A DNA stretch of 64,000 nt from Bacteroidota bacterium (GTDB taxonomy: Bacteria; Bacteroidota; Bacteroidia; UKL13-3). The stretch is taken from contig JAIXSO010000036.1 in NCBI GenBank assembly GCA_027484685.1, positions 1-64,000 of the forward strand, given 5' to 3'. Shown one piece after another: positions 19,408 through 62,814 of the stretch. Every line of letters begins with the position of its first letter. Within the stretch, counting starts at the first letter, position 1. The notes beneath the pieces were generated by a model. The model did not search any database. It saw only the letters and a list, made by a program, of their open reading frames with translations, and was not told the DNA's origin. Both the position numbers and the translations under genes were made by a program.

Positions 19408-19504
19408 AAGTTAAACCGCTAAGGTCGCTATGTTATTTCGCAAAGTTCGCGAAGCTTTTCTTTGTGCTCTTTGCGTTTTTACTTTGTGTGCTTTGCGGTT
19501 AATA
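19408..19504. repeat. GCTTTGCGGTTAA / AACCGCTAAGGTCGC tract overlapping the 3' end of sufS
   Basis: The tract starts AAACCGCTAAGGTCGC and ends TGTGCTTTGCGGTTAA, so the two ends form a loose inverted repeat. It is the same family as the 360-bp tract upstream of sufS. Its last 26 bp lie inside the sufS frame and encode the final residues LTAKHTK. Confidence 0.75.
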
Positions 19505-20756
19505 CTACTAATTTCTTTACTGCTTCCAAAAATACATCTATTTCTTCTAAGGTATTATAAACCGAAAACGAAGCTCGAATGGTTCCATCTAAACCCAATC
19601 GGTTCATTAATGGTTGTGTGCAATGATGACCCGTTCTTACCGCAATTCCTTTGGCATCCAACATCATTCCTGCATCAAAATGATGCATTCCGTTAATTAC
19701 AAATGATTGAACTGAAACCTTTTGTTTTGCTGTTCCGATTAGGGTTATTGGTTGTTCTTGTAGAGACGTATAATTATACGTCTCTACGGATTTGTTGATT
19801 TGTTCCAATTCTTCCATGCAATGTTTTAATAATGCATTTTCGTGGGTGGCAATGTTTTCTTTGCCAATTTCATTTACAAAATCTAAAGCATATTTAAAGG
19901 CAATTACATCGCCAATATTGGGTGTTCCTGCTTCAAATTTGTAAGGAATTTCGTTGTAAGTAGTTTTTTCAAAACTTACTTCTTTTATCATTTCGCCTCC
20001 ACCTTGATAAGGCGGCATGGCTTCTAATAATTCTCTTTTGCCATAAAGCACTCCAACACCAGTTGGGCCGTATAATTTATGAGATGAAACGGCTAAAAAA
20101 TCGCAATCTAAATCTTGTACATCAACTGCTAAATGCGAACAAGCTTGTGCGCCATCCAATAAAACTTTAGCTCCTACAGCATGTGCTTTTTGTATAATTT
20201 CCTTTACAGGATTAATGGTTCCTAAAGCATTACTTACCCAAACACAAGCTATCATTTTAGTTTTTGATGAAAGCATTTTATCATACTCATCCATCAATAA
20301 TTCACCAGCTTCGTTTATTGGAATTACCTTTAAAATAACACCTTTTTCTTCGCAAATCATTTGCCAAGGAACAATATTGCTATGGTGTTCCATGGTGGTA
20401 ATGATTACTTCATCGCCTGCTTGCAAAAATGTTCGACCCCAAGTTTGAGCAACTAAATTAATACTTTCAGTTACTCCTTTGGTAAAAATGCATTCTTCGG
20501 CTTCCTTCGCATTGATAAATGTTTGAATGGTTTTGCGCGTATCTTCAAACATGTCAGTAGAGCGAGCTGCTAACGTGTGAGCTGCTCGGTGAATGTTTGC
20601 ATTATCGGTGCTATAATATTTAACCAAAGCATCAATTACAGATTTTGGTTTTTGCGTAGTAGCAGCATTGTCAAAATAAACCAATGGCTTTCCATTTACC
20701 TCTTGATGAAGTATTGGAAACTGATTTCTTATTGATGTTATATCTATATTTGACAT
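19479..20756 (-). CDS. sufS: Cysteine desulfurase SufS (with in-frame palindromic insertion)
   Basis: From the ATG at 20756 the protein has 425 residues. It is a class V PLP enzyme: YFDNAATTQKP (28-37), TMEHHSNIVPW (121-131), DGAQACSH (201-208), the PLP lysine K227 in SSHKLYGPTG, and the active-site cysteine C379 in RTGHHCTQP. It removes sulfur from cysteine for Fe-S assembly, passing it to SufE. The frame stays open 27 codons upstream, but that part is translated repeat tract and is rejected. Residues 324-333 (VETYNYTSLQ) come from a perfect 28-bp palindrome at 19760-19787 that is identical to one in the RAYT transposase gene. The end LTAKHTK is also encoded by repeat. Catalytic residues are all intact. 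Confidence 0.95.
   Translation of the reverse strand: MSNIDITSIRNQFPILHQEVNGKPLVYFDNAATTQKPKSVIDALVKYYSTDNANIHRAAHTLAARSTDMFEDTRKTIQTFINAKEAEECIFTKGVTESINLVAQTWGRTFLQAGDEVIITTMEHHSNIVPWQMICEEKGVILKVIPINEAGELLMDEYDKMLSSKTKMIACVWVSNALGTINPVKEIIQKAHAVGAKVLLDGAQACSHLAVDVQDLDCDFLAVSSHKLYGPTGVGVLYGKRELLEAMPPYQGGGEMIKEVSFEKTTYNEIPYKFEAGTPNIGDVIAFKYALDFVNEIGKENIATHENALLKHCMEELEQINKSVETYNYTSLQEQPITLIGTAKQKVSVQSFVINGMHHFDAGMMLDAKGIAVRTGHHCTQPLMNRLGLDGTIRASFSVYNTLEEIDVFLEAVKKLVVLTAKHTK
19760..19787. repeat. 28-bp REP-like palindrome inside sufS
   Basis: GTAGAGACGTATAA is followed directly by its reverse complement TTATACGTCTCTAC. It is identical to the copy at 62397-62424. In the sufS frame it reads VETYNYTSL and keeps the frame open. 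It lies in the segment just before LIGTAKQKVSVQSF, where SufS homologs usually have a short loop. Confidence 0.95.
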
Positions 20757-21121
20757 ATTTTTTAGGTTTCTAACCGCAAAGGTTACAAAGGATTTATATG
20801 CGTTCTTTGCTTTTTTTCTAACCGCAAAGATCGCCAAGTTGTTTCGCTAAGGTCACAAAGTTTTTTTGTTCTTTGTTGTTATATCCTTTAACCGCTAAGT
20901 TCACATAATTCTCAAAGGTTTTCTTCGTGTTCTTTGCGTATTTTTCTTTGTGTTCTTTGCGGTTCTCTATCTTAACAGCAAAGGTCACAAAGGATTTATA
21001 TGCGTTCTTTGCTTTTTCTAATTACAAAGGTTGCTAAGTTGTTTCGCTAAGCTCACAAAGGTTTTCTTTGCGCTCTTTGCGTATTTTTCTTTGTGTTCTT
21101 TGCGGTTAATCTTCTTGACTA
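20757..21121. repeat. Tandem AACCGCAAAGGTCACAAAGG tract between sufS and GxxExxY gene
   Basis: The whole 365-bp gap consists of degenerate repeats. CAAAGGATTTATATGCGTTCTTTGC occurs at about 20779 and 20992. AAGTTGTTTCGCTAAG occurs at 20836 and 21034. TTTTCTTTGTGTTCTTTGCGG recurs at about 20940 and 21085. Forward units (CCGCAAAGGTCACAAAG) and reverse-type units (TTTGTGTTCTTTGCGGTT) alternate, giving potential hairpins. No gene is present. The last copy ends next to the GxxExxY stop codon. Confidence 0.85.
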
Positions 21122-56212: not shown

Positions 56213-59200
56213 ATGGAAATTGTAGAAAAATATACTCCTGTAAATAAAATTAGAATTGTTACTGCTGCTGCTTTGTTCGATGGACATGATGCTGCCATAA
56301 ACATTATGCGCAGAATTATCCAATCAACTGGTGCTGAGGTTATTCATTTAGGACATGATAGAAGTGCTGAAGAAGTGGTTGATACTGCCATTCAGGAAGA
56401 TGCAAATGCAATAGCCATGACAAGCTACCAAGGTGGGCATGTGGAGTATTTTAAGTTTATGTATGATTTGCTGCAAGAAAAAGGTTGCGGACATATAAAA
56501 ATATTTGGAGGAGGCGGTGGTGTAATTTTACCTACTGAAATAGCTGAATTACATGCTTATGGAATTTCCAGAATTTACTCACCTGATGATGGTAGAGCAA
56601 TGGGACTGCAAGGCATGATTAACGATATGTTGCAACAATCTGATTTTGCCACGGGCGCAAATTTATTAGCCGAAGCAAATGAAATCAACCAAAAAGTTAA
56701 AGAACAAGATTATAAATCAATTGCTAAATTAATTTCGGCAGCCGAAAATTTCCCTGACGAATTTGCTGTTTACAATCAACAAATCAACAATTCAACAGTC
56801 ATCCTGAGCGAAGTCGAAGGACAACAATCTAACACGCCAGTGTTAGGAATTACCGGAACCGGTGGCGCAGGTAAATCATCATTGGTAGATGAATTGGTGC
56901 GCAGATTTTTGATGGATTTTGAAAATAAAACCATTGCCATTATTTCGGTTGACCCAAGTAAACGCAAAACTGGTGGTGCTTTATTAGGCGATAGAATTAG
57001 AATGAATTCAATCAAAAATCCTCGTGTTTATATGCGTTCGTTGGCTACTCGTCAAAGTAATTTAGCATTATCAAAATATGTGAAAGAAGCCATTGATGTT
57101 ATAAAAGCTGCGCAATTTGATTTGATTATTTTAGAAACTTCGGGCATTGGCCAAAGCGATACTGAAATAATTGAACACAGCGATATGAGTTTGTATGTAA
57201 TGACACCAGAATATGGTGCTGCTACACAACTTGAAAAAATTGATATGTTGGATTTTGCCGACATCATTGCGTTAAATAAATTTGATAAAAAAGGTTCGTT
57301 AGATGCGCTGAGAGATGTAAAAAAACAATACCAACGTAACCATCAGTTGTTTGATAAAAACCCGGATGATATGCCAGTTTTTGGTACCATTGCTTCGCAG
57401 TTTAACGACCCAGGTATGAATAGATTGTACAAATCTATCATGAATAAATTGGTGGAGAAAACGGGTGCTAATTTGAAATCGGATTACCACATTAGCAAGG
57501 AAATGAGCGAAAAGATTTATATCATTCCTCCTGCAAGAAATCGTTACTTATCTGAAATTTCAGAGAATAACCGTAACTATGATAAATGGGTTGCTAAACA
57601 AGCTGAGATTGCTGATAAATTATTTGGTTTAAAATCATCAATAGAAACCATTGCGGCTTCTAAAATGGATGACAAAGACCGTTTGTTAAAAGGCTTAGAA
57701 GAAGCATATCAAACAGTAAATTTAGATTTAGATCCTCGTAATAAAATATTGCTAGAAACTTGGAGCGAAAAAATTGCTCAATACCAAAACGAGTTTTATA
57801 TTTTTAAAGTGCGTGATAAAGAAATCAAAATCAAAACACATTCTGAATCCTTATCGCATTTGCAAATACCAAAAGTTGCTGTGCCTAAATTCAAAGGTTG
57901 GGGCGATATTTTGCGTTGGTCGTTGCAAGAAAATTTCCCTGGCGAATTTCCTTACACTGCGGGTATTTATCCATTTAAGCGTGAAGGCGAAGACCCAACT
58001 AGAATGTTTGCCGGTGAAGGCGGACCAGAAAGAACCAACAAACGTTTTCATTATGTGAGCAAAGGCATGCCAGCTAAGCGTTTAAGTACAGCATTTGATT
58101 CAGTTACTTTATACGGACAAGACCCTGACCACAGACCAGATATTTATGGAAAAGTTGGTAATTCAGGGGTGAGTGTTTGGAGTTTAGATGCTGCCAAAAA
58201 ATTATATTCAGGCTTTAATTTAGCTGATCCTAAAACTTCCGTATCCATGACCATTAATGGGCCTGCGGCAATTATTTGTGCATTTTTTATGAATGCTGCC
58301 ATTGACCAACAATGCGAAATTTACATCAAACAAAATGGTTTGGAAGATGAAGTAAACAAAAAATTAGAAGCCATTTTTAAAGCAAGAGGAACAGCAAGAC
58401 CAACTTATAACGAAGAAATTCCAGAAGGAAATGATGGTTTAGGTTTAATGCTTTTGGGCGTTACGGGCGATATGGTTTTACCTGCCGATGTGTATCAAAA
58501 AATTAAAGTAGAAACTTTAAAACAAGTTCGTGGAACGGTTCAAGCTGATATTTTAAAAGAAGACCAAGCACAAAATACGTGTATATTCTCAACTGAGTTT
58601 TCTTTGCGTGTAATGGGCGATGTACAGCAATATTTTATCAATAACGCAGTGCGTAATTTTTATTCGGTTTCTATTAGCGGTTATCATATTGCCGAGGCAG
58701 GTGCAAACCCAATTACGCAATTGGCTTTAACACTTTCAAACGGATTTACTTTTGTAGAATACTACCTAAGCCGCGGAATGAATATTGATGATTTTGCGCC
58801 AAATCTTTCATTCTTCTTTAGCAATGGAATTGACCCTGAATATTCAGTAATTGGAAGGGTAAGCCGCAGAATTTGGGCCAAAGCCATGAAGTTAAAATAT
58901 GGTGGAAACGAACGCAGCCAAATGATGAAATACCATATTCAAACAAGTGGTAGAAGTTTGCATGCGCAAGAAATTGATTTCAATGATATTCGTACAACCT
59001 TACAAGCACTTTACGCCATTTACGATAACTGTAATTCGTTACACACCAATGCCTATGACGAAGCCATCACTACACCAACAGAAGAATCGGTGCGCAGGGC
59101 AATGGCTATTCAGTTAATCATTAACCGTGAGTTAGGTTTGGCTAAAAACGAAAATCCTTTACAAGGTTCGTTTATCATTGAAGAATTAACTGATTTGGTA

Positions 59201-59629
59201 GAAGAAGCTGTACTGGCAGAATTTGATAAAATTAACGAGCGTGGTGGAGTTTTAGGTGCCATGGAAACCATGTACCAACGCAATAAAATACAAGAAGAAA
59301 GTATGTATTACGAAATGTTAAAACATACTGGCGAATACCCAATTATTGGTGTAAATACTTTTTTAAGTTCAAAAGGTTCGCCAACCGTTATTCCGCAAGA
59401 AGTAATTCGTTCAACAACGGAAGAGAAAGAATTCCAGATTACGATGTTGAATCAATTAAAGCAAAGCAACGAAGAAAAAGGAAAAGAAATGTTGGCTAAA
59501 ATTCAACAAGTAGCCATTCATAACGGAAACATATTTGAAGCCTTAATGGAAACAGTAAAATACTGCTCATTAGGACAAATTACCAACGCCTTATTTGAAG
59601 TAGGCGGACAGTATAGAAGGAATATGTAA
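56213..59629 (+). CDS. icmF: Fused isobutyryl-CoA mutase (B12 domain, G-protein chaperone, mutase)
   Basis: The 1138-residue protein joins three parts. An N-terminal B12-binding domain (about 12-150) has DGHDAA (23-28, H25 lower ligand). A MeaB-like GTPase follows (Walker [10 protein letters not shown] 215-223, then [15 protein letters not shown]), and the (beta/alpha)8 mutase domain runs from about 560. In the substrate pocket, F599 ([10 protein letters not shown]) and Q787 ([13 protein letters not shown]) replace the Tyr and Arg of methylmalonyl-CoA mutase, the accepted mark of isobutyryl-CoA mutase. It interconverts isobutyryl-CoA and n-butyryl-CoA, with adenosylcobalamin. Residues 196-204 (VILSEVEGQ), in the linker before the GTPase, come from a dispersed repeat inserted in frame. 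The start ATG is clear; the operon context is isolated. Confidence 0.94.
56798..56825. repeat. GTCATCCTGAGCGAAGTCGA repeat inside icmF
   Basis: The sequence at 56798-56825 belongs to the CCCTTCGAC...GCTCAGGGTGAC family found between genes at about 14688, 28125, 30059 and 59638. Here it reads VILSEVEGQ in the icmF frame and forms the linker between the B12 and GTPase domains. Confidence 0.85.
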
Positions 59630-59637
59630 GAGATGTT

Positions 59638-59723
59638 GCCCTTCGACTGCGCTCAGGGTGACAATGAATGATGAATGTTGAATGATGTTCGAACCGATGC
59701 CATCGCTTTAAGCGATGGCATCG
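59638..59723. repeat. CCCTTCGACTGCGCTCAGGG element and 13-bp-stem hairpin after icmF
   Basis: GCCCTTCGACTGCGCTCAGG lies at 59638, 9 bp after the icmF stop, in reverse orientation to the copy inside icmF. CGATGCCATCGCT-TTA-AGCGATGGCATCG at 59695-59723 is a perfect 13-bp inverted repeat with a 3-nt loop. No T run follows, so terminator use is possible but not typical. Confidence 0.8.
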
Positions 59724-59856: not shown

Positions 59857-60924
59857 ATGAAGAATCAACTAAATATAATTATTCTCTTTATCATTGCCTT
59901 TACTAGTTGTAAAAAAGAAACTAATGAAAAGCCAATTGAAAATGTTATTGCAACTGAATCTTGGAAAATGTTAGACGATAGTATCATTGCTGTGACTGAT
60001 AGAAATATTCTAACTGCTAGCAACTCTTACAATAAATTGTTTTTTCAAACGCCATCAGTTTTTTACGAAATTGACTCAAATGTAAGACTCAAAAATGCTT
60101 GGGTAATGGGTCCTGATTTTGATAATGGATCTATGAAACCTTTTATCGGAAAAAACTATGTTATATACTTTGATAACCCCAAACCGCAGTATATAGAAAT
60201 TTTTGATAAAAATGATATTCATAGTCACTCACAAACTTCAATTAATCTAAAAGATAATGTATTTAATAATTACTACCGTCAAAACAGTTTTAGTAATGTA
60301 GATGATCAAAATAATTTTTGTCATTCATTCTTAAGTGGCCCTGGTAATTTTGATACATGCACATTTTATATAAACAAGTATCATCTGAGAACAGATTTTT
60401 ATTCAGATTATGATTTACTGTTTTCTAAAGCCATTATGAGGGATTTTAACTTAAGCGTTTCAAATATACACCTCATTGATGATATAATATACTATAACTT
60501 AAATGGGTTAGGTTTCAGATACCAGAGTAGCAATGGACAAATTGATACACTCGAGTTTAATTTAAGAAAAATGTTAAAAATTAATGATGTAATTTATGCA
60601 ACAAGTCAGTTCAGCGGTTACAAGGGAATAGCAAGAAACCCAAGTCTTTATTGCTCGTTTGATAATGGAAGAAATTGGCAAATTATTGGAAGTGGCGGTA
60701 GTTTTGGATATGCAAATAATCTTTCAAATATTGGAGGTAAGTTAGTTGCATCTAGCGCTCTTTGGGCTATATGTCTTGATTTTACTAGTAATTCAATTAA
60801 AACCATTAATACTAAAGATCTTCGCGCTCAAATTAAAACTATAACTGAGTTCAATAATAAAGTATACATCGGAACAGATGCTGGAGTTTATTATAAATCT
60901 CTATCCGGTTTTTTTAACGATTAA
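59857..60924 (+). CDS. Lipoprotein of unknown function, possibly propeller-like
   Basis: The 355-residue product begins MKNQLNIIILFIIAFTSC, a lipoprotein signal with lipobox FTSC (C18). The body is beta-rich; RNPSLYCSFDNGRNWQIIGSG and NNKVYIGTDAGVYYKS resemble BNR/Asp-box and two-component-sensor-like propeller repeats (DNGRxW, GTDAGVYxS). It is likely a surface or periplasmic lipoprotein of propeller fold. No function is known. It is followed by another secreted protein gene 70 bp downstream. Confidence 0.7.
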   Translation: MKNQLNIIILFIIAFTSCKKETNEKPIENVIATESWKMLDDSIIAVTDRNILTASNSYNKLFFQTPSVFYEIDSNVRLKNAWVMGPDFDNGSMKPFIGKNYVIYFDNPKPQYIEIFDKNDIHSHSQTSINLKDNVFNNYYRQNSFSNVDDQNNFCHSFLSGPGNFDTCTFYINKYHLRTDFYSDYDLLFSKAIMRDFNLSVSNIHLIDDIIYYNLNGLGFRYQSSNGQIDTLEFNLRKMLKINDVIYATSQFSGYKGIARNPSLYCSFDNGRNWQIIGSGGSFGYANNLSNIGGKLVASSALWAICLDFTSNSIKTINTKDLRAQIKTITEFNNKVYIGTDAGVYYKSLSGFFND

Positions 60925-60994
60925 ATATTGATATGTTACCCTTTAGTTTATTAAAATAAATTTTAAAGAGGCAAAATAAATTCCGCCAAATTCC

Positions 60995-61951
60995 ATGAAA
61001 CACATTTTTATTGTATTATTTATTCTTTTTTCCTTCCATTCATATGCACAGAAATTTTTTTATCATGAAACATACTTTGATAAAGTGAATGGAGTTGTTG
61101 ATTCATACTTTGGAAATATCAAGTATGAATTCAACAATAAAATAAAGCAAAATAAAATATTTTTTTATTCAAATAAAACTTTGACTGAAAAAATTGATAG
61201 TGCTAATTGTAATGAATACTTTAACAAAAAAGCACAAATTTTAGTAAATTTTGATAGTTTGTATTTTTATGATGAGATAGACCCAATTGAACCATTAGCT
61301 ACATTTAATAAAATAAGAATAGACAAGAATGGATTTGAATTTATTTTGAATACAAAACTTTGGTGCAGATCATTAGATTGTATCAAGACCTTAAAAGACA
61401 CAGATATCAGTATTTTTTACATTAATAATGAAAATTTAAACAAACTTACTGACTCTCCAATCGGTAAATCAATTTTGTTTCATTATCAAAATAATCTTAG
61501 AGAGGTAAAAGAGATTTCGACAAAAACTTATGCAATTTTTTTAGTTGATATGCAAAGAGAAATGCTTAATCCTAAAATAAGAAAATACGTAAAACGAATT
61601 GAGGGCTTTAAATATAAAAACTTAGATTCAACAATGAGTAATGAGTTGTCTAACTTAAGATATTTGAAATTCAGCAAAAAATTTGACTATTCAATTGATA
61701 TAAAAAATGTAATTAATGAAAGTAGATTGGTAATTGATTATGATATGGACAGTAAATCCGGTAAATTTATTTTGCAAGGAGTAGGTTTTGAATTTTGTCC
61801 AGGTGAATGCATGTGGATTGGTTCCAGATATCCTTTTGATTATTATTTCATTGAATCAAAGGATTTAAAAAAGGTTTTTTCTAAAGAAAATGTTGACTTA
61901 ATTTATTTATTAATAGATTCTTATGTGAATAGGATGAATTGTGATAATTGA
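60995..61951 (+). CDS. Secreted protein of unknown function
   Basis: The 318-residue product begins with a signal peptide (MKHIFIVLFILFSFHSYAQ) and then KFFYHETYFDKVNGVVDSYFGNIKYEF. I see no known motif. There are six cysteines, including a pair near CPGECMWIG at about 284-291. It has no T9SS sorting domain. It is closely downstream of the lipoprotein gene and may be co-transcribed. The REP/RAYT unit begins 26 bp after its stop. Confidence 0.6.
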   Translation: MKHIFIVLFILFSFHSYAQKFFYHETYFDKVNGVVDSYFGNIKYEFNNKIKQNKIFFYSNKTLTEKIDSANCNEYFNKKAQILVNFDSLYFYDEIDPIEPLATFNKIRIDKNGFEFILNTKLWCRSLDCIKTLKDTDISIFYINNENLNKLTDSPIGKSILFHYQNNLREVKEISTKTYAIFLVDMQREMLNPKIRKYVKRIEGFKYKNLDSTMSNELSNLRYLKFSKKFDYSIDIKNVINESRLVIDYDMDSKSGKFILQGVGFEFCPGECMWIGSRYPFDYYFIESKDLKKVFSKENVDLIYLLIDSYVNRMNCDN

Positions 61952-61977: not shown

Positions 61978-62036
61978 GTAGAGACGTTGCACGCTACGTC
62001 TTCATTAATAAAAGACGTTGCGTGCAACGTCTCTAC
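61978..62036. repeat. REP-like inverted repeat upstream of RAYT gene
   Basis: GTAGAGACGTTGCACG (61978-61993) pairs perfectly with CGTGCAACGTCTCTAC (62021-62036). The left arm continues into GCTACGTC and the right side contains GACGTTGCGTGCAACGTC, a second internal palindrome, so two REP copies have probably fused. Confidence 0.85.
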
Positions 62037-62099
62037 AGCATTGTTATAAATTATGGAAATGGTTTAATTTCAACAAATTTTTTCTAATTTTGATTTATC

Positions 62100-62660
62100 A
62101 TGTCTGATAAATTCAATGATAAATACCGAATCAAATCTGCTAGATTAGAAGGATATGATTACAGAAATGAAGGTCTTTATTATATAACCATTTGCACCAA
62201 AAACAGAACACATTATTTTGGAGAATGTAATGATGGAATCATGTTTTTAAATGATTTGGGTAAAGTGGCAGAAGATTGTTGGTTAGCAATTCCAACACAT
62301 TTTCCAAATGTGTCATTAGATGAATTTGTCATTATGCCAAACCATATTCATGGAATTGTTTGTATAAATGAAAAAATTGAAATTGGACGGACAACGGTAG
62401 AGACGTATAATTATACGTCTCTACAAACGCCCAAAAATTCACATTTTCAAAATTTATCAGCACCTGCCAAATCACTATCTACCATTATTAGGGCATTTAA
62501 AACTGTTGTGACAACAGAATCTCGAAAAATCAATCCAAATTTTGCATGGCAACCGCGTTTTCACGACCATATTATTCGGGATGCGCAATCATTTGAAAAT
62601 ATCAAAAAATACATCATCAATAATCCAATCAATTGGAAGGAAGATGAATATTATTTGTAG
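62100..62660 (+). CDS. REP-associated tyrosine transposase (RAYT, Y1 family)
   Basis: The 186-residue product has the Y1/HUH layout: YDYRNEGLYYITICTKNRTHYFGE, then the HUH motif in FVIMPNHIHGIVC (H82, H84), and the C-terminal FHDHIIRDAQSFENIKKYIINNPINW with Y171 as the probable catalytic tyrosine. RAYTs cut single-stranded DNA at REP palindromes and are thought to spread them. Residues 100-109 (VETYNYTSLQ) are encoded by a perfect copy of the palindrome inside the gene. Upstream and downstream palindromes flank it. Start and length fit the family, so it may be active. Confidence 0.92.
   Translation: MSDKFNDKYRIKSARLEGYDYRNEGLYYITICTKNRTHYFGECNDGIMFLNDLGKVAEDCWLAIPTHFPNVSLDEFVIMPNHIHGIVCINEKIEIGRTTVETYNYTSLQTPKNSHFQNLSAPAKSLSTIIRAFKTVVTTESRKINPNFAWQPRFHDHIIRDAQSFENIKKYIINNPINWKEDEYYL
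62397..62424. repeat. 28-bp REP-like palindrome inside the RAYT gene
   Basis: GTAGAGACGTATAA plus its reverse complement, perfect, identical to 19760-19787 in sufS, and in the same reading frame (VETYNYTSLQ). It sits between the HUH motif and the last catalytic helix, in a variable loop. Confidence 0.95.
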
Positions 62661-62688
62661 GTAAAGACGTTTAATTAAACGTCTCTAC
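62661..62688. repeat. REP-like palindrome directly after the RAYT stop codon
   Basis: GTAAAGACGTTTAA pairs with TTAAACGTCTCTAC, a 28-bp palindrome with one mismatch (AAAG versus GAGA side). The first base follows the RAYT TAG stop directly. Confidence 0.9.
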
Positions 62689-62692
62689 GGAT

Positions 62693-62814
62693 GCGTATCA
62701 ACCTAAATTCGCTTTCACGACAGTATAATTAGGTATGCGCAATCATTTACCAATATTCAAAATTACATCATAAACAATACTACCAATTGGATGAATGATG
62801 AATATAATAGTTGA
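62693..62814 (+). pseudogene. Remnant of a second RAYT gene (C-terminal end)
   Basis: Translation gives AYQPKF, then after a frameshift near 62711-62713 FHDSIIRYAQSFTNIQNYII and NNTTNWMNDEY up to TGA at 62812-62814. This aligns with the intact RAYT end AWQPRFHDHIIRDAQSF.NIKKYIINNPINWKEDEY. The remnant starts next to the palindrome at 62661, so a tandem RAYT pair has decayed to one gene. Confidence 0.85.

What the first reader, a model, noticed from the sequence alone, without database searches (positions are those of the whole stretch)
61978..62814. RAYT gene with three palindromes and a decayed second RAYT end
Palindromes lie upstream (61978-62036), inside (62397-62424) and immediately after the stop (62661-62688), followed by a frameshifted remnant of another RAYT C-terminus. 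The layout records a tandem RAYT duplication and loss. A transposase gene carrying its own presumed target as coding sequence raises the question of whether cleavage within the gene limits its activity.
Basis: partly seen in the sequence, partly recalled or inferred. Interest (0 to 1): 0.7.

Follow-up and report, generated by a model that had tools for sequence, protein, structure and literature searches.

The report
Transposase gene carrying its own repeat
A bacterial transposase-like gene carries, as translated code in a floppy loop, a copy of the short palindromic repeat that it probably acts on; this kind was already described, but in this genus the same repeat also sits, with different centres in different species, inside a few core genes such as tRNA synthetases.

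Summary
A 186-aa RAYT (62100-62660) has an inverted repeat pair upstream (61978-62036), a perfect 28-bp palindrome in frame (62397-62424), another directly after the stop (62661-62688), and a frameshifted second RAYT end behind it. [quoted passage not shown] the in-gene palindrome is therefore a known kind.

What I add: 58 of 80 related RAYT genes carry such a palindrome (1.48/kb, against 0.083/kb in 249 neighbouring ORFs). It matches the flanking repeat of the same locus (0 of 2000 permutations), but presence shows no phylogenetic signal. It lies in the one disordered inner loop. I read it as fast turnover in a permissive loop, not a conserved switch. In the genus, 34 of 131 repeats lie in long open frames of only eight gene families: RAYT, ValRS, AspRS, AlaRS, LeuRS, SufS, IcmF, MetH. 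Orthologous loops carry different cores; the stop-containing core TTTAATTAAA never occurs in genes.

The second RAYT end resembles that of other species more than the gene's own: an older end was displaced. Self-limiting cleavage is untested; the inner palindrome folds with its GTAG foot paired, perhaps a poor substrate.

The parts
62100..62660 (+). RAYT / TnpA-REP gene, 186 aa, subclass 2.4-like (NHIH 81-84, WQ 150-151, YIINNP 171-176)
   Evidence: ORF; Pfam Y1_Tnp 27.5 bits over cut-off 23; NCBIfam REP_Tyr_transpos 61 bits, below its cut-off of 80; model matches TnpA-REP 4er8 and IS200/IS605 transposases
61978..62036 (.). inverted pair of REP units upstream of the gene
   Evidence: 25-nt arms, 96%; same pair before the RAYT in G006 and G009
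62397..62424 (.). in-gene REP GTAGAGACGTATAATTATACGTCTCTAC, encodes about residues 100-109 (VETYNYTSL)
   Evidence: inside disordered loop 96-121
62661..62688 (.). REP directly after the stop codon, core TTTAATTAAA (no open frame through it)
62689..62808 (+). frameshifted remnant of a second RAYT 3' end, closest to RAYT ends of G004 and G009
19479..20837 (-). SufS-family cysteine desulfurase gene with an in-frame REP
   Evidence: ORF; TIGR01979 565.7 bits over cut-off 475.1
19760..19787 (.). REP inside sufS, same 28-mer as in the RAYT gene
56213..59629 (+). IcmF (fused isobutyryl-CoA mutase), neighbour of the RAYT also in six of the other genomes examined
   Evidence: NF045497 1782.9 bits over cut-off 1500; positions
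56798..56821 (.). a different repeat (GTCATCCTGAGCGAAGTCGAAGGA) in the IcmF loop that holds a REP in six relatives

Best explanation
The gene is a TnpA-REP (RAYT group 4 / subclass 2.4) and the palindromes are its cognate REP family. The in-gene palindrome is a REP that entered the long, disordered loop between the HuH strand and the next helix, where about ten extra residues are tolerated. It persists because its core (TATAATTATA) is stop-free in the frame used, unlike the commonest intergenic core TTTAATTAAA. Such in-gene REPs are gained, lost and exchanged quickly, probably by RAYT-promoted insertion or exchange acting mainly close to the RAYT gene (inferred), so the copy usually resembles the REPs around it. 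The same happens in loops of a few core genes. The 3' end of this RAYT was replaced in an ancestor by an end that came with a REP, and the older end remains behind it as a fragment (inferred). Shown: identity, position, frame, repeat family, enrichment, core switching, remnant. Inferred: that RAYT drives it, that exchange happens in place, that the insert is functionally neutral.
For: 58 of 80 relatives with an inner palindrome, 1.48/kb against 0.083/kb in 249 ORFs of the same loci (Fisher 1.6e-28); 57 of 69 palindromes between the HuH and W motifs, centres 17-52 aa from HuH (10-90%) and in two frames; inner REP matches own flanking REP, mean best half-arm distance 0.156 against 0.364 permuted, 0 of 2000, 23 loci; presence changes 20 times on a tree of 75, shuffled 19.2; L195 and L221, nearly the same protein outside the loop, carry different inner REPs in different frames and numbers; loop 96-121 is the only inner stretch with pLDDT under 50; genus census: core TTTAATTAAA 34 outside genes and 0 inside, TATAATTATA 1 outside and 11 inside; filled, empty and core-switched states of the same loop across species. 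Published parallel: PMC6006769 sections 13 and 23.
Against: In syntenic or near-syntenic orthologues (G000, G004, G006, G016) the inner REP stays a palindrome: 28, 27 and 26 of 28 bases match the window's, and the G016 change is two-sided (P 0.03, 0.21 and 0.008 at the genes' mean identities), which allows selection on the DNA. Frame has some phylogenetic signal (11 changes against 14.5, 8 of 300), so part is inherited. Double-foot REPs are over-represented in RAYT genes of the genus (5 of 7 against 14 of 124, p 0.0007), which plain insertion does not explain. No insertion event was caught with clean ends. The tree is poorly resolved (36 of 72 inner branches open).
Confidence: 0.72

Rival explanations
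1. The in-gene REP is a kept regulatory part: RAYT binds it in its own gene or message and limits or times its own expression, or cleaves it.
For: Over-representation in RAYT genes and match to flanking REPs; palindrome kept in syntenic orthologues; 12-bp DNA hairpin, -10.3 kcal/mol, with the GTAG foot paired.
Against: 22 of 80 genes lack it; presence has no phylogenetic signal; position, frame and copy number vary; in the own genome it is a 99-bp tandem array in one paralogue; enzymes with no link to RAYT carry it too.
Confidence: 0.15
2. One ancient in-frame insertion, inherited vertically; the different cores arose by point mutations under selection for pairing.
For: Same loop in most relatives; two-sided change TATAATTATA to CATAATTATG between G000 and G016; some phylogenetic signal of frame.
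Against: Variable offset, two frames, a second loop about 50 aa upstream; L195/L221 differ completely; TTGCATGCAA to TATAATTATA needs several simultaneous changes; IcmF switches frame as well as core.
Confidence: 0.08
3. For the tail (a separate question from the inner REP): RAYT tandem duplication followed by deletion of most of the second copy, unrelated to REP movement.
For: A second RAYT 3' end lies directly behind the first; L188 shows two RAYT genes about 2 kb apart.
Against: The remnant resembles the ends in G004 and G009 more than its own neighbour, and starts close behind the REP, which also fits REP-directed arrival of a new 3' end.
Confidence: 0.45

Closest known systems
TnpA-REP subclass 2.4 (Quentin et al. 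2018, PMC6006769; RAYT group 4 of Bertels et al. as mapped there)
   Same: NH[IFV]H, WQ and YIxNNP motifs, large HuH-Y distance (median 88 there, about 89 here), GT[AG]G REPs around and in frame inside the gene, 'double foot' REPs, Bacteroidetes
   Different: The sections and passages read give no count of genes with inserts, no test against neighbouring genes and no report of REPs in core genes of Bacteroidetes; the 3'-end remnant is specific to this locus and G006 among the loci read
GTAG REPs inside genes (Di Nocera et al. 2013, PMC3733652)
   Same: GTAG-tagged palindromes in frame in genes, tRNA synthetases among them; recB of two Xanthomonas with different REPs at about the same site
   Different: Their GTAG families are listed for Proteobacteria, Cyanobacteria, Chloroflexi and PVC, not Bacteroidetes; here orthologous loops are compared in up to 24 genomes and show empty, filled and core-switched states
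Rickettsia palindromic elements (recalled; mentioned in PMC3733652)
   Same: short palindromes translated inside unrelated proteins
   Different: described there as CGTC-tagged and without a dedicated transposase; sequence not compared here
REPINs / REPtrons (PMC3116915 seen in search listing only; REPtron passage in PMC3733652)
   Same: inverted REP pair next to a RAYT gene at 61978-62036
   Different: spread of this particular pair as a unit was not counted

Membership tests
TnpA-REP subclass 2.4 / RAYT group 4 | HuH motif NH[IFV]H, WQ, Y motif YIxNNP | tested here: met
   NHIH 81-84, WQ 150-151, YIINNP 171-176; definition in PMC6006769 Table 1
TnpA-REP subclass 2.4 / RAYT group 4 | long, variable insertion between strand beta3 and helix alphaC | tested here: met
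   strand 82-89, disordered 96-121, helix 126-141; variable in alignments
TnpA-REP subclass 2.4 / RAYT group 4 | GT[AG]G REPs near the gene and inside it, in frame | tested here: met
TnpA-REP subclass 2.4 / RAYT group 4 | placement in the published subclass by its own HMM or tree | not tested
   the published profiles and trees were not available
TnpA-REP subclass 2.4 / RAYT group 4 | nuclease activity on the cognate REP | not testable with these tools
   -
NCBIfam NF047646 REP_Tyr_transpos | score over the curated cut-off of 80 bits | tested here: not met
   61 bits; 53.8 bits in the genome scan, where the members over the cut-off that I read look like other Y1 subclasses
REP repeat family | many copies, palindrome with a GTAG foot, linked to RAYT | tested here: met
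   53 copies, control 0; link to RAYT in 58 genomes
IS200/IS605 insertion sequence | autonomous element, present in several near-identical copies at new sites | tested here: not met
   RAYT lies near IcmF in seven of the genomes examined, two of the copies only partial or split matches; the other RAYT matches of the genome are only about 42-64% identical

The most novel reading that the evidence does not exclude
In this Bacteroidota lineage REPs are a shifting coding cassette: RAYT exchanges whole REP cores in place inside permissive loops of its own gene and of a few core genes (mostly tRNA synthetases), so that stop-free core lineages such as TATAATTATA exist almost only inside genes and swap peptides such as VETLHATSL, VETYNYTSL and RDAINRVS between species.
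Probability: 0.25. Interest if true: 0.75.

Novelty: new member of a known kind. Interest (0 to 1): 0.45.

Why it matters
How REPs move, and what RAYTs do to their own genes, is open. The in-gene copy itself is known, but loops in essential enzymes that are empty in one species, filled in the next and filled with another core in a third give a natural record of REP gain and exchange at sites where orthology is certain. The count also argues that the in-gene copies of RAYTs are mostly turnover, not a conserved switch, which corrects the tempting self-limiting reading.

Tried and rejected
Self-limiting cleavage as main reading: set aside because presence lacks phylogenetic signal and unrelated enzymes carry the same insert. 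'REPs without any RAYT' in G005: in my notes, rejected after one search showed five NF047646 matches there (one over the cut-off); only the window-type RAYT is missing. Link of the second repeat (CTTCGACTnCGCTCAG type) to one of the other Y1 genes: none of the 21 loci scanned (20 plus L304) had it within 350 nt of the open frame. Clean insertion boundaries: not obtained; loops differ too much between filled and empty states. Literature; two searches gave nothing of use.

Faults of my own: genes on the minus strand were not flipped, so the open frames printed for them are meaningless; only the palindrome strings were used, and the alignments use the right strand. The intragenic rule (open frame at least 130 codons, at least 20 on either side) drops some sites near gene ends, e.g. 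G006 C10:100860, G004 C220:13446 and G005 C3:434070. The 131-site census allows 2 mismatches and so misses the AlaRS and LeuRS copies of the own genome (4 mismatches). The 80 loci are the best of 570 by likeness to the query set, not a random sample; three of them (L194, L212 with a stop, L244 out of frame) are not intact but stay in the count of 80; 75 entered the tree. The chance estimate for tRNA synthetases uses an assumed 22 such genes of 3000 and is not relied on.

Full report
What is there. The window is contig C60 of a 4.5-Mb genome in 72 contigs. The gene is a Y1 HuH protein: Pfam Y1_Tnp 27.5 bits over its cut-off, NCBIfam REP_Tyr_transpos 61 bits under its cut-off of 80. An AlphaFold model from 45 sequences (mean pLDDT 82.9, pTM 0.76) matches IS200/IS605 transposases and TnpA-REP 4er8; the profile search of solved structures returns 4er8 alone.

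The repeat. Full palindrome GTAGAGACG-N10-CGTCTCTAC, up to 3 mismatches: 53 sites in the own genome, 0 for the reversed control. Up to 2 mismatches in 58 related genomes: 20 have it, all 10 of the genus with 6-23 sites. A RAYT of the window's kind is found in 25 of 58; both together in 16, Fisher 6e-5. [quoted passage not shown]

Known kind. Quentin et al. 2018 (PMC6006769; passages and sections 13 and 23 read) describe subclass 2.4 with REPs inserted in frame within the tnpA-REP gene, between HuH and Y, and regard them as probably harmless in a peripheral loop. Di Nocera et al. 2013 (PMC3733652; abstract, passages and section 15 read) list GTAG REPs in genes, tRNA synthetases included. So the in-gene palindrome by itself is not new.

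How general. In 80 RAYT loci from named genomes (best 80 of 570) 58 genes hold an inner palindrome (arms at least 10 nt). There are 69 in all, 49 of them perfect and 49 double-footed. Density is 1.48/kb against 0.083/kb in 249 control ORFs of the same loci (21 palindromes in 253 kb). 57 of 69 lie between HuH and W, at varying distance and in two frames, and a few in a second loop about 50 residues upstream of HuH. Where a REP-like palindrome also lies within 600 nt outside (23 loci), the inner one resembles the own flanking one far more than those of other loci (0.156 against 0.364, 0 of 2000). Presence on the tree of 75 intact genes changes 20 times against 19.2 for shuffled labels; frame 11 against 14.5 (8 of 300). 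L195 and L221, nearly identical in the catalytic parts, have different inner REPs. In the own genome the paralogue on C63 has an array of palindromes in 99-bp repeats inside a 368-aa frame.

Core genes. In the 10 genomes of the genus 131 sites were classified: 34 in long open frames, 97 not. The 34: ValRS 8, RAYT 7, AspRS 6, IcmF 5, SufS 3, AlaRS 2, LeuRS 2, MetH 1; gene names of the seven enzymes were checked by NCBIfam for one member each (all over a cut-off). 18 of the 27 non-RAYT sites are in four tRNA synthetases. Orthologous loops: AspRS filled in 5 of 9 genomes (two with TATAATTATA, three with the TTGCATGCAA type), ValRS in 7 of 9 (two of them decayed), AlaRS 5 of 11, LeuRS 4 of 12, SufS 2 of 8. 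IcmF (24 genomes aligned): filled in 6 with four cores and two frames. In the sister genus the repeats are again in ValRS, IcmF and RAYT among others: 3 of 16 sites of G016 and 4 of 21 of G027; in G041, another family, 4 of 12 sites lie in other genes. Cores: TTTAATTAAA 0 in genes and 34 outside; TATAATTATA 11 and 1; TTGCATGCAA 11 and 30. All 34 genic 28-mers have an open frame, against 69 of 97 of the others.

Neighbourhood. The RAYT lies a few kilobases from IcmF in G000, G004, G006, G009, G014, G016 and G018 (places; in G014 and G018 the RAYT matches are partial or split), so it is inherited with its place. In the window the IcmF loop carries another repeat, and the SufS loop of G004, G005 and G008 carries a repeat of similar look: the loops are permissive for more than one repeat family.

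The tail. The fragment behind the REP is a RAYT 3' end. Its bases ACCAATATTCAAAATTACATCATAAACAAT equal those of the G009 RAYT, while the gene's own end goes with G006. G006 has a short RAYT-like piece behind the same REP (1 of 1000 shuffles reach its score), G004 none (793 of 1000). I infer displacement of an older end by a newer end that came with a REP, in a common ancestor of G000 and G006.

Does the inner REP limit the gene? Not decidable here. The inner palindrome folds into a 12-bp hairpin that includes the GTAG foot, the one after the stop into 8 bp with free feet. For the E. coli enzyme a stronger palindrome was reported to abolish cleavage (PMC3733652, passage), so the inner copy may be a poor substrate; this is inference. 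Within the genus, RAYT genes hold more double-foot REPs than other places (5 of 7 against 14 of 124), the one pattern that plain insertion does not explain.

Noticed in passing
window 19760-19787 (sufS, 19479-20837 -): The same 28-mer as in the RAYT gene lies in frame in the SufS cysteine desulfurase gene 42 kb away; relatives have an empty site, another core or another repeat there.
   Followed up: yes
L044, L055, L058, L060 (own genome): LeuRS, ValRS, AlaRS and AspRS of the own genome carry the repeat in frame; tRNA synthetases look over-represented among target genes for an unknown reason.
   Followed up: partly
window 56798-56821 and 59640-59663; L098, L100, L071: A second repeat family (CTTCGACTnCGCTCAG / CTGAGCGnAGTCGAAG type) sits in the IcmF loop of the window and after that gene; a similar-looking repeat is in the SufS loop of three relatives. 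Its transposase was not found.
   Followed up: partly
L062 (G000:C63:12735-13841 -): RAYT paralogue whose linker has grown into a 99-bp (33-aa) tandem repeat, each unit with two palindromes, still open over 368 codons.
   Followed up: partly
L053, L054, L056 (G000 C39, C41): Recurrent pairs of REPs with cores TAACATGTTA and TTTAATTAAA about 96 nt apart, possibly a longer mobile unit.
   Followed up: no
L335-L349, L354: The genus has many other Y1 proteins of different kinds with their own flanking palindromes (e.g. GTTGTTGGTGAAGAACACCAACAAC, CCTTTGTCAAAGTTCAAGACTTTGACAAAGG).
   Followed up: no
window 59857-61951: Two ORFs without Pfam or NCBIfam match lie between IcmF and the RAYT; this interval differs in the relatives compared (G006, G009, G016).
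   Followed up: no
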